Assembly: GCA_900315315.1 (NCBI GenBank)
Contig: OMYT01000028.1
Coordinates: 1 to 44,692 of the forward strand
Direction: 5' to 3'
From: an uncultured Eubacteriales bacterium
Lineage (GTDB): Bacteria; Bacillota; Clostridia; Christensenellales; Aristaeellaceae
DNA: 44,692 nucleotides
A model generated the notes under the pieces. The model saw only the letters and a list, made by a program, of their open reading frames with translations. It did no database searches and was not told where the DNA came from. Position numbers and translations under genes: made by a program. Shown here one piece after another: positions 2,832 through 24,900 of the stretch; position 1 is the stretch's first letter, and each line of letters opens with the position of its first letter.

Positions 2832-2877
2832 ATTGAACTATGGGTTCAATGACAAAGAGGTCTTTAGACAATATGAT
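2832..2877 (+). promoter_or_regulatory. shared operator-promoter module, copy 1
   Basis: A perfect inverted repeat ATTGAAC (2832-2838), 5-nt spacer, GTTCAAT (2844-2850). Its right arm runs into the -35 box ATGACA (2849-2854). Exactly 17 bp later comes the -10 box TATGAT (2872-2877). It lies 31 bp upstream of the start codon at 2909. The same architecture recurs at 3059, 18829 and 24855. A protein on the palindrome would occlude the -35 box, so repression is the natural inference. Confidence 0.85.
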
Positions 2878-2908
2878 GTTACTGCAGAAAGCGAACGGAG
2901 GGATGAAG

Positions 2909-3055
2909 ATGTCTGAGTTTGACACGTATGAGTATGATCCGTTGCAGGCCCGGGACTACTCCGATCCGGATGAGTTCTATGACGATCATTTCGAGGAGTT
3001 CGATTGTCTTGATGACGCGGAGGATTATTTCTGCGACCACAATCCGGATGCCTGA
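2909..3055 (+). CDS. very acidic 48-residue small protein
   Basis: A 48-residue protein with 19 Asp/Glu, many Tyr/Phe and a single Arg. The ATG at 2909 is chosen because GGAGGG (2897-2902) is 6 nt upstream, and the longer in-frame starts lie in or before the -10 box. It is driven directly by operator-promoter copy 1 and ends only 3 bp before copy 2. No family is recognised. The composition would suit a DNA-mimic or a partner of the basic protein encoded next, but that is inference from charge alone. Confidence 0.6.
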   Translation: MSEFDTYEYDPLQARDYSDPDEFYDDHFEEFDCLDDAEDYFCDHNPDA

Positions 3056-3058
3056 TCG

Positions 3059-3104
3059 ATTCAACCGCGGGTTCAATGACATCTCCTGATGGCCGCAGTA
3101 CAAT
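3059..3104 (+). promoter_or_regulatory. shared operator-promoter module, copy 2
   Basis: Inverted repeat ATTCAAC (3059-3065), 5-nt spacer, GTTCAAT (3071-3077), with one mismatch in the left arm. It overlaps the -35 ATGACA (3076-3081), followed by 17 bp and the -10 TACAAT (3099-3104). It starts 3 bp after the stop of the acidic-protein gene and serves the 3136-4170 cluster. Confidence 0.85.
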
Positions 3105-3135
3105 GCAGACGGAACGGATGAGAAAGGTGAGCCAC

Positions 3136-3297
3136 GTGAAGAAAACGGTGTCCCGGGAGAAGATATCCAAAAGGGCTAGGCGGGAACTGGATCGGGCAAA
3201 AAGGACTATATGGCCTATGTGCCCGGTTACAAGGATCAGGGAATCCGGCAAAGCCTACAGCCGGAATAAGGCGAAACTGATATCTGCCGAAGAATGA
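3136..3297 (+). CDS. very basic 53-residue small protein
   Basis: A 53-residue protein with 17 Lys/Arg, including a SKRARREL segment near the N-terminus. The GTG at 3136 is preferred because AAAGGTGA lies 5 nt upstream. An ATG at 3118 is in frame but has no good ribosome site and sits only about 14 nt after the -10. It is the first gene behind operator-promoter copy 2. Short basic proteins of this look are common as unnamed conserved ORFs in Firmicutes, and I cannot name the family. It could bind nucleic acid. Confidence 0.5.
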   Translation: MKKTVSREKISKRARRELDRAKRTIWPMCPVTRIRESGKAYSRNKAKLISAEE

Positions 3298-3314
3298 GAA
3301 AGGGGATCTGGAAA

Positions 3315-3719
3315 ATGGAGAACATTGAAAACAATGCTAAGATTCATGTGCTGGGCTGCGCTGCCGTCGTGGTTTCTGCTTTCAGCTTGGAGGATTGGAA
3401 ACTGGTGGAGAAGTACGCGCCGGATGCGCTGACCATTGTTGATGAGAGCGGAAAAACCGTCTTTCGCGTCACTACGGAGAGCGGCCCCGGTTGCTTGGTG
3501 AAGGACCATGCCGAGTTCGGCGCTTCCGTCACCCAGGACGGCAAGGCTACCATCACCATCCTTTTGGATCCGGACAATGACGATAAGATGGGCATGGTCA
3601 AGGAAGCCCTGTCCGGGCCGCTGATGGATCTGATCCAGATGGAGAAGATCCTTCCCGGGATCAAGAAGGGCGTGATGAAAAAGCTGGACCAGGCAAATGT
3701 GTATATCTCTCAACTGTAA
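3315..3719 (+). CDS. 134-residue protein of unknown function
   Basis: A 134-residue soluble protein. The start at 3315 has AAAGGGG about 10 nt upstream, and an in-frame ATG at 3294 lacks a site. The sequence reads as a compact alpha/beta fold (strands such as ITILLDP and VFRVTT, C-terminal helices), with no signal peptide, membrane segment or catalytic motif I recognise. It follows the basic small gene by 17 bp and shares its transcript. Codon use is GC-rich (gac, ctg, gcc), unlike the cassette beginning at 5378. Confidence 0.65.
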   Translation: MENIENNAKIHVLGCAAVVVSAFSLEDWKLVEKYAPDALTIVDESGKTVFRVTTESGPGCLVKDHAEFGASVTQDGKATITILLDPDNDDKMGMVKEALSGPLMDLIQMEKILPGIKKGVMKKLDQANVYISQL

Positions 3720-3746
3720 TCAGGAATTATTGTTGGAGGGTTGTGA

Positions 3747-3983
3747 ATGTTCAGGATGCAGCATCTGTTGTCGCACATCTTCTCGGCCTGTCTTGTGGTG
3801 GCCGGGGTGTTGGCCATGATGAAGCCGGACGGGTATTCTTTCCGCGCGGAATTCATCGCGGTCGCCCTGGTCTATGGTTTCCACCTGTTCTGCAGGGGAA
3901 TGTTCTTCTGCAGAATCGCGGACAGGCAGGTTTCTGAGACAGAAGAAAGCGATCACGCTGAAGGAGGAAAAACGAATGATTGA
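3747..3983 (+). CDS. small membrane protein with two predicted helices
   Basis: A 78-residue protein whose ATG follows GGAGGG by 6 nt. Two hydrophobic stretches, roughly residues 8-26 and 36-53, suggest a helical hairpin with a charged C-terminal tail. Its end overlaps the next start by 8 bp, so translation is coupled. Function is unknown. Confidence 0.6.
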   Translation: MFRMQHLLSHIFSACLVVAGVLAMMKPDGYSFRAEFIAVALVYGFHLFCRGMFFCRIADRQVSETEESDHAEGGKTND

Positions 3984-4170
3984 CTGGGATAATCTTCCTG
4001 AACCGGATTTTGACGCATATGATGAGCCGGCTGAGCCACTGGGTGCATATATCAATGGCCGCTGGGTGGATGCGGAAGACCTTCCCATGGGCTACGGTCA
4101 CAGCCCCGATTGGTGGGACGACGATGAATTTGGTGAAACTTTTGAAGAATACATGGAGCATACTGACTAA
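3976..4170 (+). CDS. acidic 64-residue small protein
   Basis: A 64-residue acidic, Trp/Tyr-rich protein. The ATG at 3976 follows AAGGAGG by about 9 nt and overlaps the end of the membrane-protein gene. Its composition resembles the acidic product of 2909-3055, so the cluster makes two acidic and one basic small proteins. It is the last gene before the terminator at 4199-4247. Unknown function. Confidence 0.6.
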   Translation: MIDWDNLPEPDFDAYDEPAEPLGAYINGRWVDAEDLPMGYGHSPDWWDDDEFGETFEEYMEHTD

Positions 4171-4198
4171 GCATCTAGAAATTCCATTATTGTGATCC

Positions 4199-4247
4199 GC
4201 ATGATGGATAAGCCTGATTTTCAGGTGAAAGCCATCATGCTTTTTTT
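4199..4247 (+). terminator. strong intrinsic terminator
   Basis: A 9-bp perfect stem, GCATGATGG (4199-4207) with CCATCATGC (4232-4240), has a nested CCTG/CAGG hairpin in the loop and is followed by seven T (4241-4247). It closes the small-gene cluster and separates it from the WYL gene. Confidence 0.9.
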
Positions 4248-4292
4248 GTGAAACAGGGGCAGAAGCCGGAAAGAAATCTTTTCGAACGAAGA

Positions 4293-4321: not shown

Positions 4322-4353
4322 GTTTGGGAATCCATCGAAAAAGGGATAAAGGC

Positions 4354-5334
4354 ATGACGGGAAAAGCAAGAGCACTGTTTCTTCTCCGGTACCTTCGAAA
4401 TCATTCAGACGAGGGCATGGCAGTTACGGCGAATGAGATCATGGAGGCTTTCAGGGCGACGGGCCAAAAAATCTCCCGCCCAACGCTGCGTGAGGATATT
4501 GCCTCTTTGCAGGAGGCCGGCTTTGAGATCATCGTCCGGGAAGTACCCGGAATCGCGACATATTACAAGTTCATGGACCGGGAATGGTCCGTACCGGAAC
4601 TGCAGATCCTGATTGATGCCGTTTCATCCGGGATGTTTATCTCTCGCAACAAGAGTGCGGAGATGATAGATAAACTGAAGGGTATGGCCGGTCCCACGGA
4701 GCGGGAACAGTTGATACCCTCCATTGAGGTGGAGGATCAGGTCAAGGCGCCGAATGAGCAGATCCTGTATATTATCCAAGCCATTAAGGACGCAATTCTG
4801 AAGGATGAGCAGATTTGCTTCAAATATTATGAGTTTGATCCCTTCATGAAGTGCGTGCCGAAGCATAACGGTTATGTGTATACAGTCTCGCCTTACGCCA
4901 TGATCTGGAAGAAAGACCGGTATTACTTGGTCGGTTGGAGCGAGAAGCACGAAAGTGTGGTTCATTTCAGGATTGACCGTATGGGCATGCCGAATCCGAA
5001 TGGAAATCAGCGTCGCCCGGCACCGGAGGACCTGAGACTGGAGGACCGGAGCGACAAGGTCTTTTCCATGTTTGACGGCCCGGAGGAAGTGGTGACGCTC
5101 CGCTGCCGTCCGAATCTGATCGGACAGGTCATGGACCAGTTCGGAGAGAACCTGGAGATCACGAACCGGCGGGAAAACAGGATGGACATCACGGTGACCG
5201 TGCATCTGTCCCCGACGTTCTACGCTTGGTTGTTTCAGTATACGGGGCAGATGACGGTGATCGCGCCGGAACATGTGCGGGAGGCGTATGCAGGGTATCT
5301 GCAGGATGCGCTGAACGAGGTGCTGGGAGAGTAA
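4354..5334 (+). CDS. HTH-WYL domain transcriptional regulator
   Basis: A 326-residue DNA-binding regulator. Residues about 5-65 form a DeoR/HTH_11-like winged helix (TANEIM, RPTLREDI), 140-215 a canonical WYL domain (SPYAMIWKKDRYYLVGW, then HFRIDRM), and 240-326 the WCX-type C-terminal domain. The ATG at 4354 follows AAAAAGGGA by 7 nt. WYL regulators of this layout (for example BrxR and CapW) often repress defence operons through inverted repeats and are thought to respond to nucleic-acid-type ligands. Here it sits next to two of the four shared operators, making it the leading candidate to bind them. Its GC-rich codon use matches 13781-17221, not the methyltransferase gene 43 bp downstream. 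Confidence 0.92.
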   Translation: MTGKARALFLLRYLRNHSDEGMAVTANEIMEAFRATGQKISRPTLREDIASLQEAGFEIIVREVPGIATYYKFMDREWSVPELQILIDAVSSGMFISRNKSAEMIDKLKGMAGPTEREQLIPSIEVEDQVKAPNEQILYIIQAIKDAILKDEQICFKYYEFDPFMKCVPKHNGYVYTVSPYAMIWKKDRYYLVGWSEKHESVVHFRIDRMGMPNPNGNQRRPAPEDLRLEDRSDKVFSMFDGPEEVVTLRCRPNLIGQVMDQFGENLEITNRRENRMDITVTVHLSPTFYAWLFQYTGQMTVIAPEHVREAYAGYLQDALNEVLGE

Positions 5335-5377
5335 ATTTGTTCTTCTTTGGTGTTTGAACGGAAAGGAAACAAAAATA

Positions 5378-6613
5378 ATGGGTGAGTTTATCTGTGGTGA
5401 GTGCTTAGAGGAAATGAAAAAAATGCCAAGTGATAGCATTGACTTCATTTTTACTTCTCCACCATATGCAGATCAAATAAAAGATTATGGATCGACTGGG
5501 GTTAGAATAAAACCAGATAAGTTTGATAGTTGGTTTCTTCCGCGTGCGAAAGAGATGTTTCGGATATTAAAACCTACTGGGAGTTTTGTTTTGAATATTA
5601 ACGACAAACTGGATGGAAAGTTTCAGAGTATCTTTGTTTTCAAGTTGGTAGTCATGCTGGTTGAACAAGCTGGTTTCCACTTGGTCAGAGATTATGTATG
5701 GTATAATCCCGCTACACCGCCAAACATCTTCTCTAGAGGAACTATGGGAAGAACAAAAAAATCTCATGAATACTGTCTGTGGTTTAGTAAAACAGAAACT
5801 TGGACGTTTAATATGGATGCTATTCGTAAGCCATATAGCAATCGCATGATGGATCTGTTTCAGGCTGAACCTATGGGAGGACGAGGTGAAAATTCAAGAC
5901 CAAGTCGACACAGTTTTGATTTGAGTCATACATGGAAAGATAATGGTGGAGCGGATCCGGGTAGTGTCCTGACTATAAGTAATACAAGTAGTAACGATGT
6001 ATTTCATCGGCTTTGCAAGCAATTTGGTATTAATCATCCGGCAAGATTTCCAGAAACATTAGTTGAGTTTTTCATAAAAGCGGGAACCAACGAAGGTGAT
6101 GTTGTTCTTGATCCATTTGCGGGCTCTGGTACGACTGCTATTGTTGCACAAAGGTTGGGTCGGGATTTTAAAGCGATAGAGATTAACCCTGATTTTTGTA
6201 GCATGGCAACAAAATGGCATGAGGTAGAATTCAACAGCGAGTGCTTGTATAGGAATAATCTAGAGCAGTTTTACACAGACATAATCTCCCGGTGCCGCTG
6301 GAGTCTTTTACCATTTGGGTTCTTATATGATTTGTATGAAGCGTGGCTTCCAACTGTAGGATTATATGAAAAACCACAGAAGAAAACTGATTTTAGCAAT
6401 CGAATTATTGAGTTTTTAAGAGATAAAGATGGGTGGGATGTTGATAAGCGATATGTAGTTGCGGATGAAAACAACATGCCAATGCCAGAAATGCTAATAA
6501 AACAATATAATCTCAAGAACTGGTTTAATAAAACACAGCAGAGTGAAGACGATATGATCCTATGTAGTCCTGTACTACACGAAAAATATAAGGGGGTGTT
6601 GCGACTCCCATGA
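5378..6613 (+). CDS. beta-class DNA methyltransferase (N6-adenine or N4-cytosine)
   Basis: A 411-residue S-adenosylmethionine-dependent DNA amino-methyltransferase. Catalytic motif IV TSPPY is at 26-30 and the cofactor motif DPFAGSG at about 245-251. This order, IV before I, defines the beta class. A C-terminal extension of about 120 residues after the core probably contributes target recognition or partner contacts. The ATG at 5378 is preferred, with an AAAGGAA site upstream. It opens a cassette with AT-rich codon use sharply unlike the WYL gene before it, and its stop overlaps the next start (ATGA). It presumably marks self DNA for the restriction-like genes that follow. Confidence 0.9.
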   Translation: MGEFICGECLEEMKKMPSDSIDFIFTSPPYADQIKDYGSTGVRIKPDKFDSWFLPRAKEMFRILKPTGSFVLNINDKLDGKFQSIFVFKLVVMLVEQAGFHLVRDYVWYNPATPPNIFSRGTMGRTKKSHEYCLWFSKTETWTFNMDAIRKPYSNRMMDLFQAEPMGGRGENSRPSRHSFDLSHTWKDNGGADPGSVLTISNTSSNDVFHRLCKQFGINHPARFPETLVEFFIKAGTNEGDVVLDPFAGSGTTAIVAQRLGRDFKAIEINPDFCSMATKWHEVEFNSECLYRNNLEQFYTDIISRCRWSLLPFGFLYDLYEAWLPTVGLYEKPQKKTDFSNRIIEFLRDKDGWDVDKRYVVADENNMPMPEMLIKQYNLKNWFNKTQQSEDDMILCSPVLHEKYKGVLRLP

Positions 6614-7152
6614 GTGCTAGACTATCTCAACAGGAATTACATAGGCTGTTTCTTCAGGATGTTGGTGAAATAGCGTTTGTTGCAGCAGATACTGGGAAAA
6701 AACCATTGCGTGTACGACTAGACTATCCATTTAACCGTGAACTGAATGTATATATTTTTAATTGCACTGCACCTCCAGGGGGACGTTCCATTGATGAGTT
6801 TAAAGTGCAATTAATCCTTGATGGTCAAAAGAGAGGTGAACGAGGGAGATTTGATCTGTATGATGGTCGTACAACGATAATAATAGGTTATGCTACTCCT
6901 TTTGTGGATACAAGCGCGGGAATCTGGGTTTTGTTTGAACTTGATAAGCATCAGGAATTTGCTTATTCAGCTAACATTCAAGTTTATCTGAGACAATTGT
7001 TGCGGGCCTTAGAACAAGATGTGCATGTGTGCGTAAAGCATAATCAGGAGACATTAGTAATTTGTAAAAGGCAACATCTCGTTGAAGCATTACAAACAAG
7101 GTTTAGAATTGATTTAAATGTAATGCTGGAGAGGGCAGAAAGATGGAATTGA
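6610..7152 (+). CDS. 180-residue methyltransferase-linked protein, possible DNA-recognition (B3-like) domain
   Basis: A 180-residue protein translated from an ATG overlapping the methyltransferase stop. It is strand-rich, with segments FKVQLILDG, GRFDLYDG, TTIIIGY and WVLFELDKH, followed by YSANIQVYLRQLL. This resembles, by eye only, B3/EcoRII-N-like recognition domains found with some methylases and PLD-helicase restriction systems such as NgoAVII/CglI. No nuclease motif is clear. It overlaps the helicase gene by 10 bp, so the three are made together. Treat the domain assignment as a hypothesis; the gene itself is secure. Confidence 0.75.
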   Translation: MSARLSQQELHRLFLQDVGEIAFVAADTGKKPLRVRLDYPFNRELNVYIFNCTAPPGGRSIDEFKVQLILDGQKRGERGRFDLYDGRTTIIIGYATPFVDTSAGIWVLFELDKHQEFAYSANIQVYLRQLLRALEQDVHVCVKHNQETLVICKRQHLVEALQTRFRIDLNVMLERAERWN

Positions 7153-9284
7153 GAAAGAATGATTTCAGGCCGGACTACAATAAGAATGACCATGATATTG
7201 CTGAAAGCTTCTACCTTCCTGCCATGCGGAGCAGTATCAGATATGACAGGATATCGGGATACTTTGGAAGTACGGTATATATCATAGCGTGGTCTGCACT
7301 TCTTGAGTTTGTTGCCAATGATGGAAAAATTAGAATCATCTGTTCTCCGTGCATTTCTGATGAAGATAAAAAAGCCATGACGGAAGGCTACTCTGCTCAG
7401 AACGATGAGATTATCAAGGAATCATTATCAAAGGAATTGAACGAGCTATTTGCTTTAGATTCCTTATCTAAACCAGCTAGAGCCCTTGCTTGTCTTATTG
7501 CTGAAGGAATACTGGACATTAAAATTGCTGTCCCACGAAAAGGGATGGAGCCAGATCTGGCTCGACTGTTTCATGACAAAGTTGGCATTTTTACTGATAG
7601 TCATGGAGATTCAGTCGGTTTTCGCGGATCAATGAATGAAACATTTCAGGGATTAGCAGATGGAGGTAATCTTGAATCAATAGATGTATTTCCAAGCTGG
7701 GTTGATACAAGGGACTCTTTCCGCGTTCAAAGTGCATCAGAATACTTTGAAAGATTATGGAATCATAATGAGCAGAATGTTCTCGTTTATAATTTTCCTG
7801 AAGCCATAAGAAAAAACCTAATCAACAAGAGCAATGGTTATGATTGGAAGACCTTAGCAAAAGAAATATCAACAAGTATTTCATTGGCAAGAAAATGGTC
7901 ACCCAACAAACGCAATTCATCAAAAACGCCTAGACCACATCAACTACAGGCCTTGGAAAACTGGGTCAAGAATGGACGAGTTGGCATCTTGGAACACGCA
8001 ACAGGGAGCGGAAAAACATTTACTGCGATTTGCGCAATAAGAGATGCTTTAGATAGAGGGAAATCAATTCTTGTCCTTGTGCCATCAAAGGAATTACTAG
8101 GACAATGGAAAGCAGAAATAGAGGATGCTATACGTGACATTCAAGTGAGTTATCTATTATGTGGTGATGGAAACAATACCTGGAAGGAAAACGAAACGCT
8201 CCAACTGTGGACACGACCTAGTGAAACTACAAACAAGATTACTATCGCGATTATGGATACAGCCTGTAGCAATCAATTTGTTCATAGTGTTGTTGCTGGT
8301 GAACATTTGCTACTTGTCGCGGATGAAGTTCATCGTATCGGAAGTCCAGCCAGGAGGAACATCTTAAATATATATGCAAAAGAGCGTTTGGGGTTATCAG
8401 CCACTCCAATTCGCTATGGAGATCCAGAAGGAACAGAGGCTATTTTCACATATTTCGGAGGAATCGTTCCTCCTGTGTTTTCTCTAGAAGACGCAATTAA
8501 AGCCAAGGTGTTAACACAGTATTATTATCATCCCTTGCAAGTTCATTTAACCGCCGAAGAACAGGATGATTGGCGCAATTTAACTAAGCAGATTAATAAA
8601 TTGATTGCCATGTGTGCCAAACCAGGAGAATCTGTTGGTAGTGTCATCTCATCAAATTCAAGGCTTCAAATGAAGCTGCTTGAACGAGCTCGCATACTAA
8701 AACAGGCGCATAACAAAATCAGTCTTTCTTTACAGGTTATTCAAAAATACTATGAACGAGATCAGCGATGGATTATTTACTGTGACAATCAAGAACAATT
8801 AAGAGCCGTGCTCTCGCTTTTGCTCAAAAACGGATATGACGCATATGAGTATCATTCAGGGATGAAGGGCGACCGTTCGGAGACGCTAAAATACTTCGAA
8901 TTAAATGGTGGGGTACTTGTTTCAATCCGTTGCTTAGATGAGGGTGTAGACATTCCCGCAACAACACATGCGCTAATATTGGCATCATCAAAAAACCCGA
9001 GAGAGTTTATTCAAAGAAGAGGCCGGATACTAAGAAAATCACCAGGAAAATACTTTGCGCAATTGTATGATGCAATAGTTGTTCCGGATTTTCCACCTGA
9101 TGAAAATGAAAAAGGCAGCTCAATTGTCGAAGCTGAATTGTCAAGAGCAATACAATTCGGCGAATGGGCAGAAAATCCATCATGTGTATCAGATTTACGC
9201 ATTATAGCACGCAAGCATGGAATTGATTATCAAAAGATAAAGGATGGAGGACTTGAAGATGACGACGAGACAGAACCTGAATGA
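7143..9284 (+). CDS. PLD-like nuclease domain fused to DEAD/DEAH-type helicase
   Basis: A 713-residue SF2 protein. The N-terminal region (about 1-230) is phospholipase-D-like, with FHDKVGIF near 143-150 and GSMNET near 161-166, corresponding to the HxK and GSxN elements. The helicase core follows: Walker A ATGSGKT (286-292), DEVH box (394-397) and motif VI QRRGRILR (624-631). Proteins of this design act as ATP-driven DNA translocases or nucleases in restriction-type systems. It overlaps genes on both sides (10 bp and 26 bp). One HKD-type motif per chain implies that an active PLD site would need a dimer. It is probably the restriction motor of the cassette. Confidence 0.9.
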   Translation: MELRKNDFRPDYNKNDHDIAESFYLPAMRSSIRYDRISGYFGSTVYIIAWSALLEFVANDGKIRIICSPCISDEDKKAMTEGYSAQNDEIIKESLSKELNELFALDSLSKPARALACLIAEGILDIKIAVPRKGMEPDLARLFHDKVGIFTDSHGDSVGFRGSMNETFQGLADGGNLESIDVFPSWVDTRDSFRVQSASEYFERLWNHNEQNVLVYNFPEAIRKNLINKSNGYDWKTLAKEISTSISLARKWSPNKRNSSKTPRPHQLQALENWVKNGRVGILEHATGSGKTFTAICAIRDALDRGKSILVLVPSKELLGQWKAEIEDAIRDIQVSYLLCGDGNNTWKENETLQLWTRPSETTNKITIAIMDTACSNQFVHSVVAGEHLLLVADEVHRIGSPARRNILNIYAKERLGLSATPIRYGDPEGTEAIFTYFGGIVPPVFSLEDAIKAKVLTQYYYHPLQVHLTAEEQDDWRNLTKQINKLIAMCAKPGESVGSVISSNSRLQMKLLERARILKQAHNKISLSLQVIQKYYERDQRWIIYCDNQEQLRAVLSLLLKNGYDAYEYHSGMKGDRSETLKYFELNGGVLVSIRCLDEGVDIPATTHALILASSKNPREFIQRRGRILRKSPGKYFAQLYDAIVVPDFPPDENEKGSSIVEAELSRAIQFGEWAENPSCVSDLRIIARKHGIDYQKIKDGGLEDDDETEPE

Positions 9285-9450
9285 ACTGTTGAATGTTCTC
9301 GAAGAAATCCGCAGTAGCAAATACCCTGACGTTCCGAAAGAACTCATAGAACAGATTGCAATCTCTCAATACGATAATCAAGACGATCGCAACAAGGCAA
9401 GAACCGAAACAATGAAAACCCTGGCAGATTATATTAACAAACTGGGTTAA
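9259..9450 (+). CDS. small DNA-modification-system-associated protein
   Basis: A 63-residue helical, charged protein overlapping the helicase end by 26 bp, with GGAGG about 8 nt before the ATG. It begins with a leucine-rich helix (NELLNVLEEI) and includes YPDVPKELIEQIAI. Short proteins of this type sit between helicase and ATPase genes in DNA-modification cassettes. It may be a subunit or adaptor. No catalytic residues are seen. Confidence 0.65.
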   Translation: MTTRQNLNELLNVLEEIRSSKYPDVPKELIEQIAISQYDNQDDRNKARTETMKTLADYINKLG

Positions 9451-9466
9451 TTGGAGGTGATGAAAA

Positions 9467-11473: not shown

Positions 11474-11851
11474 ATGGCTGAGAGTATAACAACTATTGTG
11501 CTGTCCGGTCAGGCACAAAAAGTAGCTAATCAGATGAAAGATAGTGGGACTTTCCCGGATGCATTGTCTGCTGCAAAATTCGGAATGTCGTATGCAATCA
11601 AGTATTATTGGGAAGATGTGGATACTCCAGAGAAACTGTCAAAATTGAATTCAATATATGACTCGAGAGGAACTACATATAATATTGGTTCACTCGACCC
11701 GGATAATTACATTGACAAGTTGATGTCGGCTCTTTATCCGGGCACTAATTCCCCATATGCGTTTATGCGAGCACTGATGTGCTTCGGTTTGAACAAACTC
11801 GGAGATTTATTAGATGAGGGAAGACTGTTCCCCATCAACAAGGCAATGTGA
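11474..11851 (+). CDS. small RHH-like protein in the position of DndE
   Basis: A 125-residue protein with a good AGGAGG site. The N-terminus (TTIVLSGQAQKVANQM, then FPDALSAAKFGMSYAIKY) looks like a strand followed by two helices, as in ribbon-helix-helix proteins. The C-terminal half is helical. DndE proteins are of similar size, bind DNA and follow DndD, so an analogous role is plausible. No direct DndE signature is claimed. It is followed 10 bp later by the sigma-factor gene. Confidence 0.65.
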   Translation: MAESITTIVLSGQAQKVANQMKDSGTFPDALSAAKFGMSYAIKYYWEDVDTPEKLSKLNSIYDSRGTTYNIGSLDPDNYIDKLMSALYPGTNSPYAFMRALMCFGLNKLGDLLDEGRLFPINKAM

Positions 11852-11861
11852 GGTAAAATCA

Positions 11862-18828: not shown

Positions 18829-18874
18829 GCTGAACTGCAGGTTCAATGACAGACACCTCGGATTTCCGTACAAT
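18829..18874 (+). promoter_or_regulatory. shared operator-promoter module, copy 3
   Basis: Left arm GCTGAAC (18829-18835, five of seven matching), 5-nt spacer, GTTCAAT (18841-18847). It overlaps the -35 ATGACA (18846-18851), with a 17-bp spacer and -10 TACAAT (18869-18874). It lies 35 bp upstream of the zinc-ribbon gene and so drives the 18910-22924 operon. Confidence 0.82.
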
Positions 18875-18909: not shown

Positions 18910-19221
18910 ATGAAGACAGCACGGAGCCTGGTGGCGGATTTACTGGAAGCGGTTGATTCGACCAATGGGAGTTTTATACAATTGCCAAAGGAGGATGCTG
19001 TCCGTATTGCTGAACTGCTTGTTGGCGTACAGTTTGTCGGTGAAACACCAAAGCGCCTTGACGGGAAAATTCTGTTTTACTGTCCGTCCTGTGAGAAGAG
19101 CTTCAGTGCGGCAGGGCGTGAAGATACAGACAACTTTGAGAAATGGCATTACCATACCTGGTACGCTCCGTGTCCATGGTGCAGACGTGAGGTGTTGCAG
19201 AATGACGGATACTGGCGATAG
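18910..19221 (+). CDS. small zinc-ribbon protein
   Basis: A 103-residue protein behind a GGGAGG site. Cys58, Cys61, Cys88 and Cys91 form two CPxC knuckles 27 residues apart (FYCPSC and CPWC), separated by an aromatic/His-rich loop (EKWHYHTWY). This is a classic zinc-ribbon arrangement. The N-terminal 50 residues are helical. It is the first gene behind operator-promoter copy 3, followed 18 bp later by an HD-domain hydrolase. It probably binds nucleic acid or acts as an adaptor for the HD and UvrD proteins. Confidence 0.75.
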   Translation: MKTARSLVADLLEAVDSTNGSFIQLPKEDAVRIAELLVGVQFVGETPKRLDGKILFYCPSCEKSFSAAGREDTDNFEKWHYHTWYAPCPWCRREVLQNDGYWR

Positions 19222-19239
19222 CTTAAAGGAGAGTTGAGA

Positions 19240-19860
19240 ATGGATACTTTTGATCTGGAGTTGCAGCGCGACAGGTTTTTGAAGGTTTTTGACGAACAGA
19301 TCAGAGAACGCGAGGGAAAGGAAGAACTCAGGGAATGGCTCCTGAGCGACTCTTGCGATTTCTTCACGGCACCGGCCAGTACAAAATACCATGGAAACTA
19401 TACCGGTGGCCTATGCGAACATTCCCTGGATGTGTATGATATGGCAGTGCAACTGGAAGGGCTCTATCGGGAGAACATTCGGAAACAGTATCTGGTTCTG
19501 AATCGTCCTTATGACAGAGAAGAGTTCATGGAATCTCTGGCTGTCGCGGCGCTCTTCCATGACTTGTGTAAAGCAAATTTCTATAAGACCAAGATCAACG
19601 GAAAAAATGTTGTCTTTGTTGTGGATGAGCAGCTGTCCTTCGGAAGTCATGGCGGAAAAAGTGTGTATATGCTATCGAAATACCTAAAAGATATCCGGGA
19701 TGAGGAAGCGATCGCCATCAACTGCCATATGGGGTTCTCGCGTTCAGATGATAACTCCATCAGCATAAGCGAGTCGTTTCATTTCTCGCCCTTGGCCTGG
19801 ATTATCCATGTGGCGGATGAGGCGGCGACGTTCATGTTAGACAGGGTAACGCCGCAGTAA
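19240..19860 (+). CDS. HD-domain phosphohydrolase
   Basis: A 206-residue HD-superfamily metal-dependent hydrolase. Metal ligands can be read in order: His in CEHSLDVY, the HD pair in LFHDLCKAN, His in SHGGKS, His in NCHMGFS and Asp in IIHVADEAA. The layout resembles YhaM-type or other nucleic-acid or nucleotide HD phosphodiesterases without an extra binding domain. The ATG at 19240 follows AAAGGAGAG by about 6 nt. It sits between the zinc-ribbon and UvrD-DnaQ genes, suggesting nucleotide or nucleic-acid end processing in the same pathway. Substrate unknown. Confidence 0.85.
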   Translation: MDTFDLELQRDRFLKVFDEQIREREGKEELREWLLSDSCDFFTAPASTKYHGNYTGGLCEHSLDVYDMAVQLEGLYRENIRKQYLVLNRPYDREEFMESLAVAALFHDLCKANFYKTKINGKNVVFVVDEQLSFGSHGGKSVYMLSKYLKDIRDEEAIAINCHMGFSRSDDNSISISESFHFSPLAWIIHVADEAATFMLDRVTPQ

Positions 19861-19890
19861 CCTGTTAATCTGATGGCTGGAGGAACATGA

Positions 19891-22545
19891 GTGGAAGCTT
19901 TGGAGAGGGTTCCGAACGCGGAACAGCAGGCTGTGATTGATGAACTGGATAAGAATATCATCCTGTTCGCCAGCGCGGGGACGGGGAAGACTTTCTCTGT
20001 CGCCCGGCGGGTGGAAAAGATCATCGCGTCCGGCCGTGCTCTTCCTGAGGAGATTCTATGCCTGACGTTTACCATCAAGGCCGCAAATGAGATGAAGGAC
20101 GACATTATGGTATACGCGGGAGAGGCTGCGAAGGGTGTCACCGTGAGCACGATCCACAGTTTCGCCTATCAGACGCTGAAAGAGGAATATGTCCGCCGGC
20201 CGGAGTTCTATACCCTGCCGACAGTCTGTGATGACACGGAAGCTTTTGAGATTGCCCGGAGAGTGCTGGAAGATCTGGGGATTTCGGAGAAGACATCCAT
20301 ATTTGACCATCCCGGAGTGATCACTGGAATCATCGGGGCTGTCAAGCAGCAGCGGGAACTGATGGGCCTTTATACGGATGATGAGGTCGCGGATTTCCAG
20401 AAGGTTTACCGCTATATCCGGGAATCCTGCTTGGATCTGTGCCGGAGGACACTGGTGTTCTATGATTACAAATCCAAACGGGAGGGTGAGGATGAGCCCT
20501 TTGCCCGGGTGCTGGAAAATGGAGCGGGCCTGTTTCTGCATGGTTATTGCGAGGAACTGCGCAAAAGCGACAAGCTGGATTATGACGATCTGATCTGCAT
20601 GACGCATAAGCTCCTTCGGGAACCGGAGCCGCAGAGGTACTGGCGGAAGAAATACCGGTATATCATCATCGATGAGATGCAGGATACTAGTGAACTGGAA
20701 TATGACATGCTGCGGCAGTTGTTCCCCGGAAACCATATCATGATGTGTGGGGACTTCTTCCAGACGATTTACCAGTGGCGCGGGTCCAATCCGGAGAAGG
20801 TGCTGGGTAGCTATGTCCGGGATTATGGCGCTGAGCGGCATATGTTCGCGAGGAATTACCGATCGACCAGGATGCTGACGCTGGCATCTTTCGGGTATCT
20901 GCGGAATACTTTCCCGGATCTGATGGGAAGGTATTGCCCGGCGCAGGTGATTACAGAGAGCGAGATATCCGGGGAGCCGATCCGGAATATCCGGGCTGAT
21001 AGTTATGAAGCCGGCGCCGTCTGGATTTATAACTGGCTGGAAGCGAACTGCCCGGAGGATCCCACAAAGGTCTGCATCATGTGCAGGACCAATCCGCGTA
21101 TTGAGAAACTGTATACGCAGTTGACACAGATCAGCCGCGCCCGGGCGGACGGGAAGGAACTGAGGTTCTTCACGGTGGAGAGCGGAACGAAGTTCTTCCG
21201 TAAGCCGATTATACGGGACGCGCTGGCGTTCTATAAGATCCTGGTGAACAGGACGGATTCGGAGGCGTTCCGTCGGCTGGCGGAACGGTACGTGACTGGT
21301 GTTGGCAAACAGACGCTGAAAAAGATCCAGGAACAGAGTGAACTGGGGCTGTTCCCGGCGTCCTACGCGGATCCGGACCTGTATAAATACGGGGATCCGT
21401 ATTACACGCTGACGGAGGCGTACCGCCAGGGCAATGTGGTGGTGTACGATACGGAAACCACCGGTCTGGATCTGGACAGGGATCAGGCGTTCCAGATTTC
21501 CGCGATCCGGTTGGGCCCGGACGGGGAGATCGTAGACCAGATGGACCAGGTGATGATCCCGACGGTGGAAATCTGCCCGGCTGCTCAGATGACGCATCAT
21601 CAGACAATGGAGACGATCCGTGAACGTGGCGGCATCAGCATCCGGGAGGGCCTTGAGAGATTTCTTCAGTTCTGCAAAGGATCCGTGCTGGTGGGACATA
21701 ACAACCTGTGCTTCGACAGCCCGCTCATTAGGAGACAACTGAAGGAGAACGGTCTTCAGCAGCCGGAGATTCTGGCGGAATATGATACGCTGGTGCTGGC
21801 ACACCAGTTGTTGCCGAAGTCTGTGAACCATAAGCTGGAAACCATGTGTGGGCATTTCGGGATTGTCAATGAGGCAGCCCATGACGCGCTCGGGGATATC
21901 ACGGCGACTGGGAAAGTTTTGGGCAGGTTCCTTTCGGATTTCATTGTTCCACGGACAATGGCGCGTATGCAGGCACTGGAAGAGTTCAGGCCGAAGTTTG
22001 AGAAGCTCTTCGCTTTTATTAAGAAACTCCGGAAGGAGTATCTGGAGAAGAATGATGTCAGCGGCATGACGAAGGAAATTGCTAAGGTCTGCCTGATGAA
22101 GAAGGAAAACCAGGACGATACGAGCCGTCTGGTGCTGGAGGATTTCCTGTACACCATTGATCATACGGAGATCGCGGATGGCATGAGGTATCTGCAGGAA
22201 ATCATCCGGGATTCCGCTCTGTCCGGCAGCCAGATTGATATGCTGATCCGGAAACTGAAGAAAATCCCAATTATTACGGTACATCAGTCAAAGGGCTGCG
22301 AGTTTGATACGGTCATCATCGGGGACGCGGACGACAGCAGTTATCCGACGTACCAGGCGGTCAGGAACAATACGGAAGAGGAAGAAAAACGGGTTTTCTA
22401 TGTGGCGATTTCCCGGGCAAAGGAACGGCTGTTCCTGGTGTCTACCACTTCCGCAGAAACATATTACGGATACAGGCAGAACCCGCAGAGCCGGTATATT
22501 GACAAAATACCGGCGGAATGTGTCAGGACAACTGTGATCCGGTAA
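19891..22545 (+). CDS. UvrD-family SF1 helicase with internal DnaQ-type 3'-5' exonuclease domain
   Basis: An 884-residue fusion. Helicase motifs at the N-terminus: Q-motif-like NAEQQAVI, Walker A ASAGTGKT (about 29-36), and Walker B IIIDEMQDTS near 260. An intact DEDDh exonuclease domain sits at about 515-695: VVVYDTETTGLDLD, then VLVGHNNLCFDSPLIRRQL, then HDALGDITATG. The C-terminal helicase motifs resume as ITVHQSKGCEFDTVIIG near 796 and FYVAISRAKERL near 835. The start is GTG 19891, with GGAGG 7 nt upstream. An overlapping ATG at 19887 is out of frame and soon stops. Unwinding plus 3'-5' degradation in one chain suggests DNA end resection. GC-rich codon use. Follows the HD gene by 30 bp. 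Confidence 0.92.
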   Translation: MEALERVPNAEQQAVIDELDKNIILFASAGTGKTFSVARRVEKIIASGRALPEEILCLTFTIKAANEMKDDIMVYAGEAAKGVTVSTIHSFAYQTLKEEYVRRPEFYTLPTVCDDTEAFEIARRVLEDLGISEKTSIFDHPGVITGIIGAVKQQRELMGLYTDDEVADFQKVYRYIRESCLDLCRRTLVFYDYKSKREGEDEPFARVLENGAGLFLHGYCEELRKSDKLDYDDLICMTHKLLREPEPQRYWRKKYRYIIIDEMQDTSELEYDMLRQLFPGNHIMMCGDFFQTIYQWRGSNPEKVLGSYVRDYGAERHMFARNYRSTRMLTLASFGYLRNTFPDLMGRYCPAQVITESEISGEPIRNIRADSYEAGAVWIYNWLEANCPEDPTKVCIMCRTNPRIEKLYTQLTQISRARADGKELRFFTVESGTKFFRKPIIRDALAFYKILVNRTDSEAFRRLAERYVTGVGKQTLKKIQEQSELGLFPASYADPDLYKYGDPYYTLTEAYRQGNVVVYDTETTGLDLDRDQAFQISAIRLGPDGEIVDQMDQVMIPTVEICPAAQMTHHQTMETIRERGGISIREGLERFLQFCKGSVLVGHNNLCFDSPLIRRQLKENGLQQPEILAEYDTLVLAHQLLPKSVNHKLETMCGHFGIVNEAAHDALGDITATGKVLGRFLSDFIVPRTMARMQALEEFRPKFEKLFAFIKKLRKEYLEKNDVSGMTKEIAKVCLMKKENQDDTSRLVLEDFLYTIDHTEIADGMRYLQEIIRDSALSGSQIDMLIRKLKKIPIITVHQSKGCEFDTVIIGDADDSSYPTYQAVRNNTEEEEKRVFYVAISRAKERLFLVSTTSAETYYGYRQNPQSRYIDKIPAECVRTTVIR

Positions 22546-22555
22546 AGGAGGCAGT

Positions 22556-22924
22556 ATGGACAGGTTTCATGTAATCAGACATCCGCTGGGCGGATCGGAT
22601 ATTTATGACGCCAGCGGGAAACAGGTGGGTTATTCCCTGCCGAGTGCACTGGGCGGCGGGGAGGATTTCTATGACATGGATGGCAATCCGGTTGGCCAGT
22701 CTTTTGATGATGCGTATGGCATGTCGGATTTCATCGGCGTGGGCAACGGCAGTTACGGCTATATGGACCAGGAAATCATCATGGGCCGGAATGCCTGGCT
22801 GCACGGAGATCCGTTCCATGCGGAAGAAGAGCCCGGCCCGGGCGGGCTGGGTAGTCTGGACGGTTTTGAGCCGGGAGACGGGTTTGATTCCGGTCCGGAC
22901 TGGGGAGACGGCGGGCTGGATTAA
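22556..22924 (+). CDS. Gly/Asp-rich 122-residue protein
   Basis: A 122-residue acidic, glycine-rich protein with an AAAGGAGG site and a low-complexity C-terminus rich in Gly, Asp and Phe. The N-terminal part contains repeats of an xDxxGxxVG pattern (IYDASGKQVGYS, FYDMDGNPVGQS), typical of short beta-hairpin repeats. It is the last gene of the operon started by copy 3 and overlaps the convergent XRE gene by 4 bp. Function unknown. Confidence 0.6.
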   Translation: MDRFHVIRHPLGGSDIYDASGKQVGYSLPSALGGGEDFYDMDGNPVGQSFDDAYGMSDFIGVGNGSYGYMDQEIIMGRNAWLHGDPFHAEEEPGPGGLGSLDGFEPGDGFDSGPDWGDGGLD

Positions 22925-23217
22925 CTGCCGCCAAAAACATCGGAGCCGCAGGACTTGTCCTGCGGCTCGCTCTGTTCAATGGTCTGGAAGACCAGGATGT
23001 TCTCGATGGGGACCTCGAGGATGAAACCTAGCGCCAGCAGGTTGTCGGTGCTGGGAAGGGTTTCACCGCGCTGCCACTTGTAAATGGCCTGTGGGGCGTC
23101 GAAGCCGAAGTAGTTCTGGAGATCGGTGACAGTGAGGCCTTTGGCCTTCCGGAGACGCTGGATGTTGGCGCCGGTGGCGGCCAGGTTGATGACAGGGAAG
23201 GCCTTGAAGATGACCAT
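22921..23217 (-). CDS. XRE-family HTH transcriptional regulator
   Basis: A 98-residue protein. Residues about 15-70 form a Cro/C1-type HTH: IQRLRKAKGLTVTDLQNYFGF, then AIYKWQRGETLPSTDNLLALG. A short polar C-terminal tail follows. The ATG follows AAAGGAG by about 9 nt on the minus strand. It is convergent with the glycine-rich gene and lies downstream of the small membrane-protein gene. It could regulate the divergent promoters at 23512-23584. Target unknown. Confidence 0.88.
   Translation of the reverse strand: MVIFKAFPVINLAATGANIQRLRKAKGLTVTDLQNYFGFDAPQAIYKWQRGETLPSTDNLLALGFILEVPIENILVFQTIEQSEPQDKSCGSDVFGGS
22943..22968 (-). terminator. perfect 12-bp hairpin inside the 3' end of the XRE gene, probable terminator
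   Basis: GAGCCGCAGGAC and GTCCTGCGGCTC are perfect complements separated by only 2 nt. On the minus strand the hairpin is followed within about 5 nt by five T. It lies within the last codons of the XRE gene, so it would end that transcript at the stop, and it could also block read-through from the convergent operon. Confidence 0.55.
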
Positions 23218-23293
23218 CCGAATCGCTCCTTTCGTTCAGGTCGCGTACTGGTGAGGGCGAGAGGATCCCGGCTGTATCCGGGATCCGCCGCCA

Positions 23294-23458
23294 TCAGCCC
23301 CGGAGTTTGATCCACAGGGCGGTGATGGCGACGAGGGTGGCGCCGATGACGCCGACGCCGGCGACGGCCTGCCAGCCGTCGAGCTTGATGTCGAGGTTGG
23401 CGTTGGCTTTGAGGTCAATGTTGGGGGCGGGCTTGGTGCTGGGGATGATCGGGTTCAT
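23294..23458 (-). CDS. small single-helix membrane protein
   Basis: A 54-residue protein whose ATG at 23458 follows AAGGAGG by 8 nt on the minus strand. An in-frame ATG at 23476 lies upstream of that site. Residues 30-50 form one transmembrane helix (AVAGVGVIGATLVAIT), with a polar N-terminus and KLRG at the end, so the N-terminus is probably outside. It is upstream of the XRE gene on the same strand. Toxin-like small membrane peptides have this look, but there is no direct evidence. Confidence 0.5.
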   Translation of the reverse strand: MNPIIPSTKPAPNIDLKANANLDIKLDGWQAVAGVGVIGATLVAITALWIKLRG

Positions 23459-23511
23459 GTTCTTAACCTCCTTCATGGTGTCTGGTCGATTGGTTCCTGC
23501 TGACAGATTTT

Positions 23512-23539
23512 ATTATAAGGATTTCAGGGGACAGTTAAA
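23512..23539 (-). promoter_or_regulatory. promoter for the minus-strand membrane-protein/XRE genes
   Basis: On the minus strand, TTTAAC (complement of 23534-23539), 16-bp spacer, TATAAT (complement of 23512-23517). It is about 55 bp upstream of the ATG at 23458 and close to the rightward promoter at 23555. Confidence 0.5.
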
Positions 23540-23554
23540 TTCACATGAAAAATG

Positions 23555-23584
23555 TTGATATGACCCCTATTTTTTACGTATATA
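23555..23584 (+). promoter_or_regulatory. candidate promoter of the second WYL-like regulator gene
   Basis: TTGATA (23555-23560), 18-bp spacer, TATATA (23579-23584), within an AT-rich stretch. The element TGACCCC occurs at 23561 and again near 23619, just before the gene, possibly a direct-repeat binding site. It lacks the shared palindrome. Confidence 0.4.
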
Positions 23585-23645
23585 TATGTGATATAGTATG
23601 TTTAAAGATAAATTAGTGACCCCCGTTTGGGGAAAAGGAGCAGAA

Positions 23646-24680
23646 ATGGCGAAAGTCAATGATGAGAAATTTTACATCGGTGTTCCGGCGGATATATACA
23701 CGACGCTGAATAGGGACGCGGAACAGTTCGGGATTTACAGGGATAATAGTTCGGAAGTGAATATGAACCGTTTTCTGAGCCTGCTGCTTCTGGGGTATTA
23801 CAGGAAATACAAGCAGGAAAGGAATGAGAAAACCATCCGGATCAGGGAGACGCTCAGTCCGTGGATCCGTGTGCAGAAAAAGGCGGAGGAACTGGCGGAG
23901 CAGATGATGGAGGAGATTGTCCTGCCGGAGGTTCCGAAGCGTAAAGGAAAGAATCCGGAACGCCTGTCGTACAAGCCGACCAGGGAGACTGACCAGATCA
24001 TTACTGAAATAAAAGAAAACTATCCCGCCTACACCCAGTATCTGTGCAGGATGTTCATGAGTTACTGCGAAAAACCGATCCATGAAAGGGAGAGGATTGT
24101 TTTCCATGATACCGCTGTCTTCCTGAAGGAGGCCTGCAAAGGAAAAAGGGAAATCGTCTTTACAACAACCAATAATCCCGGCCGTCTGCATTATGTGATT
24201 CCATATGATCTTGTGGCTGGCGCGGAGGAGATGAACAATTATCTGCTGTGCCAGGAATACAATCAGTACAACCAGCGCCTTGAGCCTGTCTCGTACCGGC
24301 TGTGCCGGATTCGGAAACCGGATTACTCTGAAACATCCGGAATTCTGGATAAAGAGGTGGCCCGGTATCTGGACCTGATGAAAAAGAACGGCCCCCAGTA
24401 CGCTATCACTGAGGATACGGAAATCTGCGTGAAGCTGACACCCGAGGGGCAAAAGAGCTACCGTCATATCTATTTCGCGAGACCGGCTTTTGACAGAATC
24501 GAAAAACTGGAGAATGGGGACGCACTGTATTATTTCAGCGCGTCTCGGGACCTGGTATTCCGTTTTATCATCCGGTTCAGGGCGAGTGAGGCGGAAATTA
24601 TATCCCCGCCGGACCTGCGTGATAGGGTTCATCAGCATTTCAGGGATTCGGTTTTGCCCTATGAGAGGGATCAGGAATAA
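23646..24680 (+). CDS. WYL-like regulator with RHH-type N-terminus
   Basis: A 344-residue protein starting at an ATG 5 nt after AAAAGGAG. The N-terminal 60 residues (KFYIGVPADIYTTLN, then MNRFLSLLLLGYYRKY) read as a strand plus two helices, as in ribbon-helix-helix DNA-binding proteins. A helical linker follows. The centre (about 190-245: HYVIPYDLVAGAEEMNNYLL, then SYRLCRIRKP) resembles a WYL domain, and the C-terminus (YYFSASRDLVFRFIIRF, then HFRDSVLPYE) a WCX-like domain. It lies 174 bp upstream of operator copy 4 and points at the TerY-P operon. It is a strong alternative to the 4354 WYL protein as the regulator. Domain calls are by eye. Confidence 0.7.
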   Translation: MAKVNDEKFYIGVPADIYTTLNRDAEQFGIYRDNSSEVNMNRFLSLLLLGYYRKYKQERNEKTIRIRETLSPWIRVQKKAEELAEQMMEEIVLPEVPKRKGKNPERLSYKPTRETDQIITEIKENYPAYTQYLCRMFMSYCEKPIHERERIVFHDTAVFLKEACKGKREIVFTTTNNPGRLHYVIPYDLVAGAEEMNNYLLCQEYNQYNQRLEPVSYRLCRIRKPDYSETSGILDKEVARYLDLMKKNGPQYAITEDTEICVKLTPEGQKSYRHIYFARPAFDRIEKLENGDALYYFSASRDLVFRFIIRFRASEAEIISPPDLRDRVHQHFRDSVLPYERDQE

Positions 24681-24854
24681 TAATCCGGATGGGTGTCGTC
24701 GCTGCCTTCTATTCCATTCAATATCCATCAGCATAACAAATTGAGTCAAGAAGTCATTTCCTACCGTATCTGGTTGCTGTCTGCTATGAGAGCCATTGCA
24801 GGAGCGGGATGCGGTGCAAGTCGCGGAATCTTCAGTTTAAGACTGGGCTTCGGG

Positions 24855-24900
24855 ATTGAACTGCCAGTTCAATGACAGAAGTACGGTGATTGGGTATGAT
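24855..24900 (+). promoter_or_regulatory. shared operator-promoter module, copy 4
   Basis: A perfect ATTGAAC (24855-24861), 5-nt spacer, GTTCAAT (24867-24873). It overlaps the -35 ATGACA (24872-24877), with 17 bp to the -10 TATGAT (24895-24900). It is the best match to copy 1. It is the only such module between the WYL-like gene at 23646 and the vWA operon, so it is the probable main promoter of 25091-44481. Confidence 0.85.

What the first reader, a model, noticed from the sequence alone, without database searches (positions are those of the whole stretch)
2832..24900. Four copies of one operator-promoter module define a local regulon
Seen directly: ATTGAAC-N5-GTTCAATGACA-N17-TA(T/C)(G/A)AT at 2832-2877, 3059-3104, 18829-18874 and 24855-24900. 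The palindrome always overlaps the -35 (ATGACA in all four). The spacer to the -10 is exactly 17 bp each time, while the spacer and flanking bases vary. All four are upstream of a well-formed gene start. The three gene groups controlled span 40 kb and include the 20-kb TerY-P operon, a UvrD-DnaQ/HD operon and two small-gene units. Conserved arms inside otherwise divergent DNA point to selection for a shared regulator that likely blocks the -35.
Basis: seen in the sequence. Interest (0 to 1): 0.9.

Follow-up and report, generated by a model that had tools for sequence, protein, structure and literature searches.

The report
Shared promoter switch for defence genes

Summary
The four operator-promoters are real. 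GTTCAATGACA-N17-TAYRAT occurs four times in the 4.26 Mb genome, all in this window, though the left arm is exact in only two copies. A matrix scan finds exactly four window sites (35-44 bits; next best 7.1) and one on each of two other contigs, beside genes that look conflict-related by eye. The module is not local: a scan of 84,980 genomes found 84 stretches, mostly in gut Clostridia (about 2 expected by my arithmetic). The proposed WYL regulators are not supported: the RHH-WYL homologue is in 5 of 50 operator-bearing genomes. A small Cro/C1-type HTH gene at 22921-23217 (-) fits better. Relatives lie in 39 of 80 operator loci and, at E<=1e-17, in 47 of 50 operator genomes. Starting from HTH genes, 17 of 30 loci carry the operator with its -10 at exactly 17 bp, against 0 of 30 for generic HTH_3 genes. 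All 14 exact palindromes near these HTH genes sit flush against TGACA. Best reading: an HTH dimer, probably a repressor, controls conflict, defence and RNA-repair operons from a phase-locked operator. Binding, sign and signal are untested.

The parts
2832..2877 (+). Site 1: palindrome 2832-2850 (ATTGAAC-N5-GTTCAAT), -35 ATGACA 2849-2854, -10 TATGAT 2872-2877
   Evidence: (44.3 bits)
3059..3104 (+). Site 2: palindrome 3059-3077 (left arm ATTCAAC), -35 3076-3081, -10 TACAAT 3099-3104
   Evidence: (39.0 bits)
18829..18874 (+). Site 3: palindrome 18829-18847 (left arm GCTGAAC), -35 18846-18851, -10 TACAAT 18869-18874
   Evidence: (35.1 bits)
24855..24900 (+). Site 4: palindrome 24855-24873, -35 24872-24877, -10 TATGAT 24895-24900
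   Evidence: (44.3 bits)
22921..23217 (-). Proposed cognate regulator: 98-aa Cro/C1 (Xre) HTH protein P0004; helix in recognition position QAIYKWQ; no operator of its own upstream in the window
2903..3055 (+). Regulated unit 1: 50-aa acidic small protein
3118..4170 (+). Regulated unit 2: small genes 3118-3297 (59 aa, basic), 3315-3719 (134 aa), 3747-3983 (78 aa), 3976-4170 (64 aa, acidic). The 3315 product has a homologue behind the C116 operator.
4199..4247 (+). Terminator-like hairpin plus U tract between the small genes and the WYL gene
   Evidence: -23.6 kcal/mol, z -4.5
4354..5334 (+).
18910..22924 (+). Regulated unit 3: Cys-motif protein (18910-19221; homologue behind the C135 operator), HD domain (19234-19860), UvrD helicase with inserted exonuclease domain (19891-22545), Gly/Asp-rich protein (22556-22924)
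23646..24680 (+). Regulator with RHH-like N-terminus (by eye) and WYL match; its locus also holds the HTH gene here and in three other family genomes
24966..24994 (+). Second promoter-like element (TGGACA-17-TAAAAT) in the leader of the vWA operon
25025..44481 (+). Regulated unit 4: three vWA proteins, PP2C, kinase (TerY-P-like), SF1 helicase (PADLOC MkoA) and large uncharacterised proteins; start 25025 (TTG) or 25091 (GTG); operon extent inferred from gene spacing

Best explanation
The four sites are operator-promoters of a regulon controlled by a small single-domain Xre (Cro/C1-type) HTH protein, encoded in the window at 22921-23217 (-). Its dimer is proposed to bind TTNAAC-N5-GTTNAA, centred near -43 and flush against a near-consensus -35 followed 17 bp later by the -10. 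By default it would block sigma region 4 and hold several conflict, defence and repair operons off; an unknown stress or infection signal would release them together. Shown by sequence: the module, its fixed phase, its co-occurrence with this HTH subfamily and not with generic HTH_3 genes, and the genes behind it. Inferred: physical binding, the sign (repression), the signal, and that the window's own HTH acts on all six sites of this genome.
For: (1) HTH relatives (>=60 bits) in 39 of 80 operator loci (568 kb) against 1 of 30 bare-palindrome loci (that one is itself an operator locus) and 1 of 25 viral loci. (2) At E<=1e-17 the family is in 47 of 50 operator-bearing genomes; 34 of 37 after leaving out the 13 genomes whose proteins gave rows to the profile. 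In the family it is 90 of 308 (my hand count of the table; a lower bound, because that call scored at most 18 candidates per genome). (3) HTH-first test: 17 of 30 loci around the best HTH hits hold the operator (<=4 mismatches) with TANNNT at spacer 17; spacers 12-22 gave 0,0,0,0,0,20,1,0,0,1,0. Generic HTH_3 loci: 0 of 30. (4) 14 of 14 exact TTNAAC-N5-GTTNAA palindromes in the HTH-first loci are flush with TGACA; generic HTH_3 loci have no such palindrome; of 30 loci fetched for a bare palindrome, 5 have TGACA. (5) The six YPQAIYKWQHGECLP proteins all pair with GTTTAATGACA sites, most others with GTTCAATGACA. (6) 16 of 40 HTH genes in operator loci lie within 400 bp downstream on the same strand (autoregulation-like). 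(7) AlphaFold gives a confident HTH fold (pLDDT 95); nearest solved folds include C.AhdI, C.BclI, CapH, DdrO and ImmR. (8) The window promoters match 10 of 12 consensus bases, which favours repression; T at -1 (91%) and A at -2 (73%), not imposed by the search, complete the palindrome.
Against: The window's HTH gene has no operator upstream. Two paralogues on contig C180 have no operator within the 3 kb held. 41 of 80 operator loci and 13 of 30 HTH loci lack the partner within the DNA held, and three operator genomes lack a strong member. At E<=1e-8 the genome test does not discriminate: 50 of 50 operator genomes but also 259 of 308 family genomes. The HTH profile was built from proteins next to operators, so the HTH-first test favours operator-linked types; without the four genomes known to carry the exact module it is 16 of 26, and at least two more (G119, G251) are genomes loci. 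Operator and family genome sets differ in taxonomy. The six GTTTAA cases may be one lineage, and L194 (GTTTAA), L195 and L204 (GTTGAA) depart from the simple pairing. Phase invariance is unusual for a plain repressor: DdrO sites range from about -50 to +20 (PMC8533742, passages). No binding or expression data exist.
Confidence: 0.62

Rival explanations
1. Same HTH-operator pair, but the HTH is a class II activator (like lambda cI at PRM, or controller proteins at their upstream site; both recalled): bound at about -43 it touches sigma region 4 and switches the promoters on.
For: Phase to the -35 is invariant: 14 of 14 exact palindromes flush with TGACA; 20 sites at spacer 17 against 2 at any other spacer from 12 to 22. 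The two closest solved folds are controller proteins C.AhdI and C.BclI.
Against: The -35 (ATGACA, 5 of 6), 17-bp spacer and -10 are near consensus, whereas activator-dependent promoters usually have a poor -35 (recalled).
Confidence: 0.25
2. One reading: one of the window's WYL proteins is the shared regulator.
For: WYL regulators control defence operons elsewhere (BrxR, CapW; search listing). The HTH gene is in the locus of the RHH-WYL gene in 4 of the 8 family genomes that have it.
Against: RHH-WYL homologue in only 5 of 50 operator-bearing genomes; the other WYL protein near 1 operator locus. Neither has an operator upstream.
Confidence: 0.06
3. LexA/SOS-type site: GAAC-N5-GTTC as a LexA box variant.
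For: GAAC...GTTC resembles Gram-positive LexA boxes (recalled); UvrD with an exonuclease is repair-like.
Against: Gram-positive LexA boxes have N4 (recalled); in the HTH loci exact palindromes number 14 with N5, 0 with N4 and 0 with N6. I recognised no lexA or recA among the genes listed beside the sites. LexA binding was not tested.
Confidence: 0.04
4. A divergent sigma factor of the island (11814-13574) recognises the conserved -35 region.
For: A sigma-70-like protein with an MzaA-like C-terminal half is in the window.
Against: The -10 and spacer look like ordinary sigma-70; the symmetric upstream arm suggests a dimer; weak sigma-like matches near only 2 operator loci.
Confidence: 0.03

Closest known systems
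DdrO/RDRM radiation-desiccation regulon (Deinococcus)
   Same: Xre-type HTH repressor, 17-bp palindrome in promoters, dispersed repair regulon (PMC8533742 passages; PMC5552922 listing); DdrO is among the structure hits
   Different: Palindrome differs (RDRM consensus TATGYYHTTARCRKA); RDRM position varies, here fixed; DdrO is removed by the IrrE protease (listing), while no HExxH protein is among the 180 non-redundant ORFs downstream of operators
Restriction-modification controller (C) proteins such as C.AhdI and C.BclI
   Same: Small Xre proteins regulating defence genes; best fold matches
   Different: C proteins act on their own restriction-modification operon through paired C-boxes (recalled); here one palindrome per promoter and several unlinked operons
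CapH/CapP
   Same: HTH controller of immune operons; the CapH HTH is a fold hit
   Different: CapH works with a peptidase, CapP (recalled); none identified here
BrxR/CapW WYL regulators
   Same: Control of defence islands (listing)
   Different: WYL architecture; the RHH-WYL gene here does not co-occur with the operator
RptR
   Same: Small repressor of a defence island that also controls itself
   Different: Binds TAGCTA repeats overlapping the -10 (PMC12255303 passages)
RtcR-controlled RNA repair operon
   Same: Dedicated control of RNA-repair genes
   Different: RtcR is an activator with a CARF-type domain (abstract in listing); here Xre and sigma-70-like promoters

Membership tests
Xre / Cro-C1 HTH transcription factors | HTH_3-type domain | tested here: met
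   17 of 17 aligned members hit HTH_3 at E<=0.01; P0004 itself is just below the gathering score (22.7 against 23 bits); fold confident
Xre / Cro-C1 HTH transcription factors | Binds a palindromic operator as a dimer | not testable with these tools
   Only co-occurrence and phase statistics
DdrO-type regulon | RDRM palindrome | tested here: not met
   Operator is TTNAAC-N5-GTTNAA
DdrO-type regulon | Partner IrrE/ImmA-like metalloprotease nearby | tested here: inconclusive
   No HExxH in 180 non-redundant ORFs downstream of operators; upstream genes and whole genomes not checked
Controller (C) proteins | Encoded with and acting on a restriction-modification operon through tandem C-boxes | tested here: not met
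   Single palindrome per promoter; the downstream genes identified are mostly not restriction-modification genes
BrxR/CapW WYL regulators | WYL protein co-occurring with the operator | tested here: not met
   RHH-WYL in 5 of 50 operator genomes; the second WYL protein tested only in loci (1 locus)
LexA/SOS | GAAC-N4-GTTC box | tested here: not met
   Exact N4 palindromes in HTH loci 0, N5 14; LexA itself not tested
TerY-P system (regulated operon) | vWA, PP2C and kinase with C-terminal Zn ribbon or OB fold | tested here: inconclusive
   vWA, PP2C and kinase domains found, TerY profile only weakly matched (E 3e-4); kinase C-terminus not assigned

The most novel reading that the evidence does not exclude
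A previously undescribed, horizontally spread regulatory code of gut Clostridia: an Xre subfamily with a near-invariant recognition helix and a phase-locked operator-promoter that jointly controls unrelated anti-phage, stress and RNA-repair operons (RNA ligase, Thg1, PTH2, PNK-like kinase, PARG-like, TerY-P-like), so that one signal switches on both attack and repair.
Probability: 0.4. Interest if true: 0.8.

Novelty: new variant of a known kind. Interest (0 to 1): 0.62.

Why it matters
If right, a 46-bp signature marks co-regulated conflict operons in uncultured gut bacteria, so it can be used to find new defence and RNA-repair genes without homology (for example the MNLKEAFR family, behind 12 of 82 sites; no Pfam match for the member tested). 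It also offers a one-regulator handle on how defence and repair of its collateral damage might be switched together, testable with one small protein and one promoter.

Tried and rejected
WYL regulators: rejected as general partner. Bare palindrome as the signal: TTGAAC-N5-GTTCAA has 52 sites in 41 of 308 family genomes, near a uniform-base expectation of about 51 (my arithmetic) but above the reversed-pattern control (8 genomes); of 30 fetched examples 5 have TGACA followed by a TANNNN hexamer 17 bp on. Phage origin: 25 viral loci hold the 21-bp core, 1 of 25 has the -10 at 17 bp, and that one alone has the HTH, so the rest look like chance. LexA and sigma factor: see rivals.

Weak controls and slips: the 25 'palindrome-only' loci used were what remained after I had taken out the five TGACA-bearing loci, so their zeros are by construction and I do not use them as evidence; the informative control is the generic HTH_3 set. 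The N4, N6 and N7 versions of the operator gave 3, 7 and 2 sites at <=4 mismatches in the HTH loci; I take these as shifted readings, since exact N4 and N6 palindromes are absent. One search listed HTH hits by E-value; later counts use >=60 bits. In one search three small window ORFs (2902, 3748, 3977) were in the wrong frame and so were not tested (corrected frames). The C147 hit scored below 6 bits and was dropped. L110-L113 are and are counted apart (HTH in 1 of 4), not in the 80-locus counts. L077 (Clostridium sp.) and L079 (Desulfobacteraceae) look like chance matches; they stay in the 80-locus counts but were not among the 50 genomes, nor were L072 and L076 and the genomes after L091. 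The own-genome pattern misses site 18829 because of its left arm. The WYL gene at 4354 was not searched in whole operator genomes.

Literature: searches listed no paper that I recognised as describing this operator or pairing; I saw listings and, for five papers, passages. The Xre motif survey PMC12565409 (abstract, outline, passages) has no TTGAAC or GTTCAA in its main text, but its supplementary motif table was not readable here. The RNA-repair review I wanted is not held.

Full report
OBSERVATION. All four sites exist at the stated coordinates. The right arm with the -35, the 17-bp spacer and TAYRAT share one architecture, and this combination occurs four times in the 4.26 Mb own genome, all here. 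The left arm is ATTGAAC at 2832 and 24855, ATTCAAC at 3059 and GCTGAAC at 18829. A position matrix trained on other genomes finds exactly these four in the window (35.1-44.3 bits; the fifth is 7.1 bits and is the reverse reading of site 4), one in contig C135 (41.4 bits) and one in C116 (36.5 bits); five first-order Markov shuffles of the window gave nothing at 2 bits or more. So this genome (89% complete) has at least six sites.

CONTEXT IN THE GENOME. The window holds many conflict-related genes: MTase, MTaX1, PbeA and PbeC, UvrD with an inserted exonuclease, and a vWA/PP2C/kinase/MkoA-like operon. The operator heads two small-gene units, the Cys-motif/HD/UvrD unit and the vWA operon. The MTase/Pbe operon lies behind a terminator-like hairpin and its own promoter-like element, so it is probably outside the regulon. 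The C135 site precedes a homologue of the window's 18910 protein (64% over 84 residues) and then a Schlafen-like gene (by eye). The C116 site precedes a homologue of the window's 3315 protein; TIR-like, DNA methylase, Vsr-like and SNF2-like genes follow (by eye).

SPREAD. The module TGAAC-N5-GTTCAATGACA-N17-TANNNT is in 84 stretches of the 84,980-genome collection, against about 2 expected from base counts (my arithmetic). Most titles are Lachnospiraceae or other Clostridia from gut or rumen; a few are Erysipelotrichaceae, Faecalibacillus and Coriobacteriia. I analysed 80 of the 84 first; they hold 82 sites. Positions not imposed by the pattern are also conserved (T at -1 in 91%, A at -2 in 73% of 77 non-redundant sites, the window's included), which completes the palindrome ATTGAAC/GTTCAAT. 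In viral contigs the 21-bp core occurs in 25 loci, with the -10 in 1, and that locus alone has the HTH. Some carriers have several modules: Butyrivibrio SIG341 has three on one 66-kb contig and one on another.

THE REGULATOR. Homologues of the RHH-WYL protein are in 8 of 308 family genomes and 5 of 50 operator genomes. In contrast a small HTH family is the largest cluster of genes behind the operators (19 of 82 sites) and is in 39 of 80 operator loci at >=60 bits. Of the 40 HTH genes in these loci, 16 lie within 400 bp downstream on the same strand, 4 further downstream, 12 upstream on the same strand, 7 convergent and 1 divergent. At E<=1e-17 the family is in 47 of 50 operator genomes (exceptions G312, G331, G336), or 34 of 37 without the genomes that gave rows to the profile, against 90 of 308 family genomes by my count of the table. 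That baseline is a lower bound (at most 18 candidates scored per genome), the two sets differ in taxonomy, and at E<=1e-8 the test does not discriminate (50 of 50 against 259 of 308). The window carries such a gene at 22921-23217 (-), P0004.

HTH-FIRST TEST. I fetched the 30 best HTH loci of the family, one per genome, and looked for the operator with up to 4 mismatches and a -10. 17 of 30 loci (20 sites) carry it. At spacers 12-22 the counts were 0,0,0,0,0,20,1,0,0,1,0. Three permuted palindromes gave 0; N3, N4, N6 and N7 versions gave 0, 3, 7 and 2 sites, which may be shifted readings, since exact N4 and N6 palindromes are absent. 30 generic HTH_3 loci gave 0. Without the four genomes that one search had shown to carry the exact module the count is 16 of 26; G119 and G251 are also genomes loci. 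The profile was made from operator-linked HTHs, which favours this result; the generic control shows that it is not a property of HTH genes at large. All 14 exact TTNAAC-N5-GTTNAA palindromes in these loci are flush with TGACA. The six proteins with YPQAIYKWQHGECLP (L206, L208, L210, L215, L216, L217) all have GTTTAATGACA sites, most others GTTCAATGACA; L194 (GTTTAA), L195 and L204 (GTTGAA) differ. The six may be close orthologues, so this counts as one or a few events.

MECHANISM. AlphaFold gives a confident HTH fold (pLDDT 95) with helix 43-49 (QAIYKWQ) in the recognition position; nearest folds include C.AhdI, C.BclI, BldD, ClgR, ImmR, CapH, DdrO, SinR and P22 c2 (best E 1.3e-3, as usual for so small a domain). 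The palindrome centre lies near -43 if transcription starts 7 nt after the -10 (inferred) and overlaps the -35 by 2 bp. Near-consensus promoter elements (10 of 12 bases) favour repression by blocking sigma region 4. The invariant phase is what a class II activator needs and is unlike DdrO, whose sites vary in position. I put repression first and activation second.

TARGETS ELSEWHERE. Behind operators are: an RNA ligase (PHA02142 OB + RNA_ligase), PTH2, Thg1, an AAA_33 kinase and PARG_cat_microb; Metallophos enzymes, AAA_21 ATPases and SLFN_AlbA_2; and the MNLKEAFR family behind 12 of 82 sites. Of 20 proteins scanned had no Pfam match. This suggests a conflict and RNA-damage regulon, inferred from gene content alone; transport, metabolic and unknown genes also occur among the 180 non-redundant downstream ORFs, some of which are probably not real genes.

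LITERATURE. Searches listed no paper that I recognised as describing this operator. RptR binds TAGCTA (passages) and CapS TTAA half-sites (passages). TerY-P is described as a hypothesised phosphorylation switch associated with restriction systems (PMC11090510 passages). The Xre motif survey PMC12565409 has 223 motif clusters; its main text has no TTGAAC/GTTCAA, but its motif table was not readable here, so prior in-silico detection is possible.

VERDICT. Interest 0.62.

Noticed in passing
window 11814-13574 (+): Sigma-70-like protein (MzaA-like C-terminal half) inside the MTase/Pbe operon.
   Followed up: partly
window 5354-11461 (+): N6/N4 MTase + MTaX1 + PbeA + PbeC; no phosphorothioation (Dnd) modification gene seen among the window proteins scanned, so perhaps a methylation-linked version of a phosphorothioate-restriction module.
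   Followed up: no
window 164-2682 (-): Two adjacent AIG1/septin-like GTPases; the second weakly matches LeoBC.
   Followed up: no
L139-L142: HTH gene and RHH-WYL gene in the same 4-kb locus in 4 of the 8 family genomes that have the WYL; they may be partners.
   Followed up: partly
L034:4863-4935 and L044:1234-1306: One palindrome shared by two divergent promoters (TGTCATTGAAC-N5-GTTCAATGACA).
   Followed up: partly
L030, L044, L048, L068, L073, L080, L088, L094, L095, L099, L101, L106: MNLKEAFR protein family right behind the operator; in L048, L068, L080, L088, L094, L099 and L101 a convergent HTH gene lies about 1.2 kb on. No Pfam match for the L095 member.
   Followed up: partly
L028:816-5101 (-): Operator-HTH-RNA ligase-metallophosphoesterase operon, an RNA-repair-like unit (ligase named from its similarity to the L071 protein).
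   Followed up: partly
window 23520-23585: Inverted repeat AGGGGACA/TGACCCCT upstream of the RHH-WYL gene (by eye); possibly its own site.
   Followed up: no
L013:4599-5426: The gene behind the C116 operator starts with a stretch that looks ubiquitin-like by eye; no Pfam match.
   Followed up: no
sites in L030-L109, positions 5-9 of the core: The five centre bases are biased (T A C A A/G) and not symmetric, in promoter orientation.
   Followed up: no
window 22921-23217 (-): The HTH protein weakly matches the HTH end of PADLOC's RmrA profiles (E 2.6e-6).
   Followed up: no
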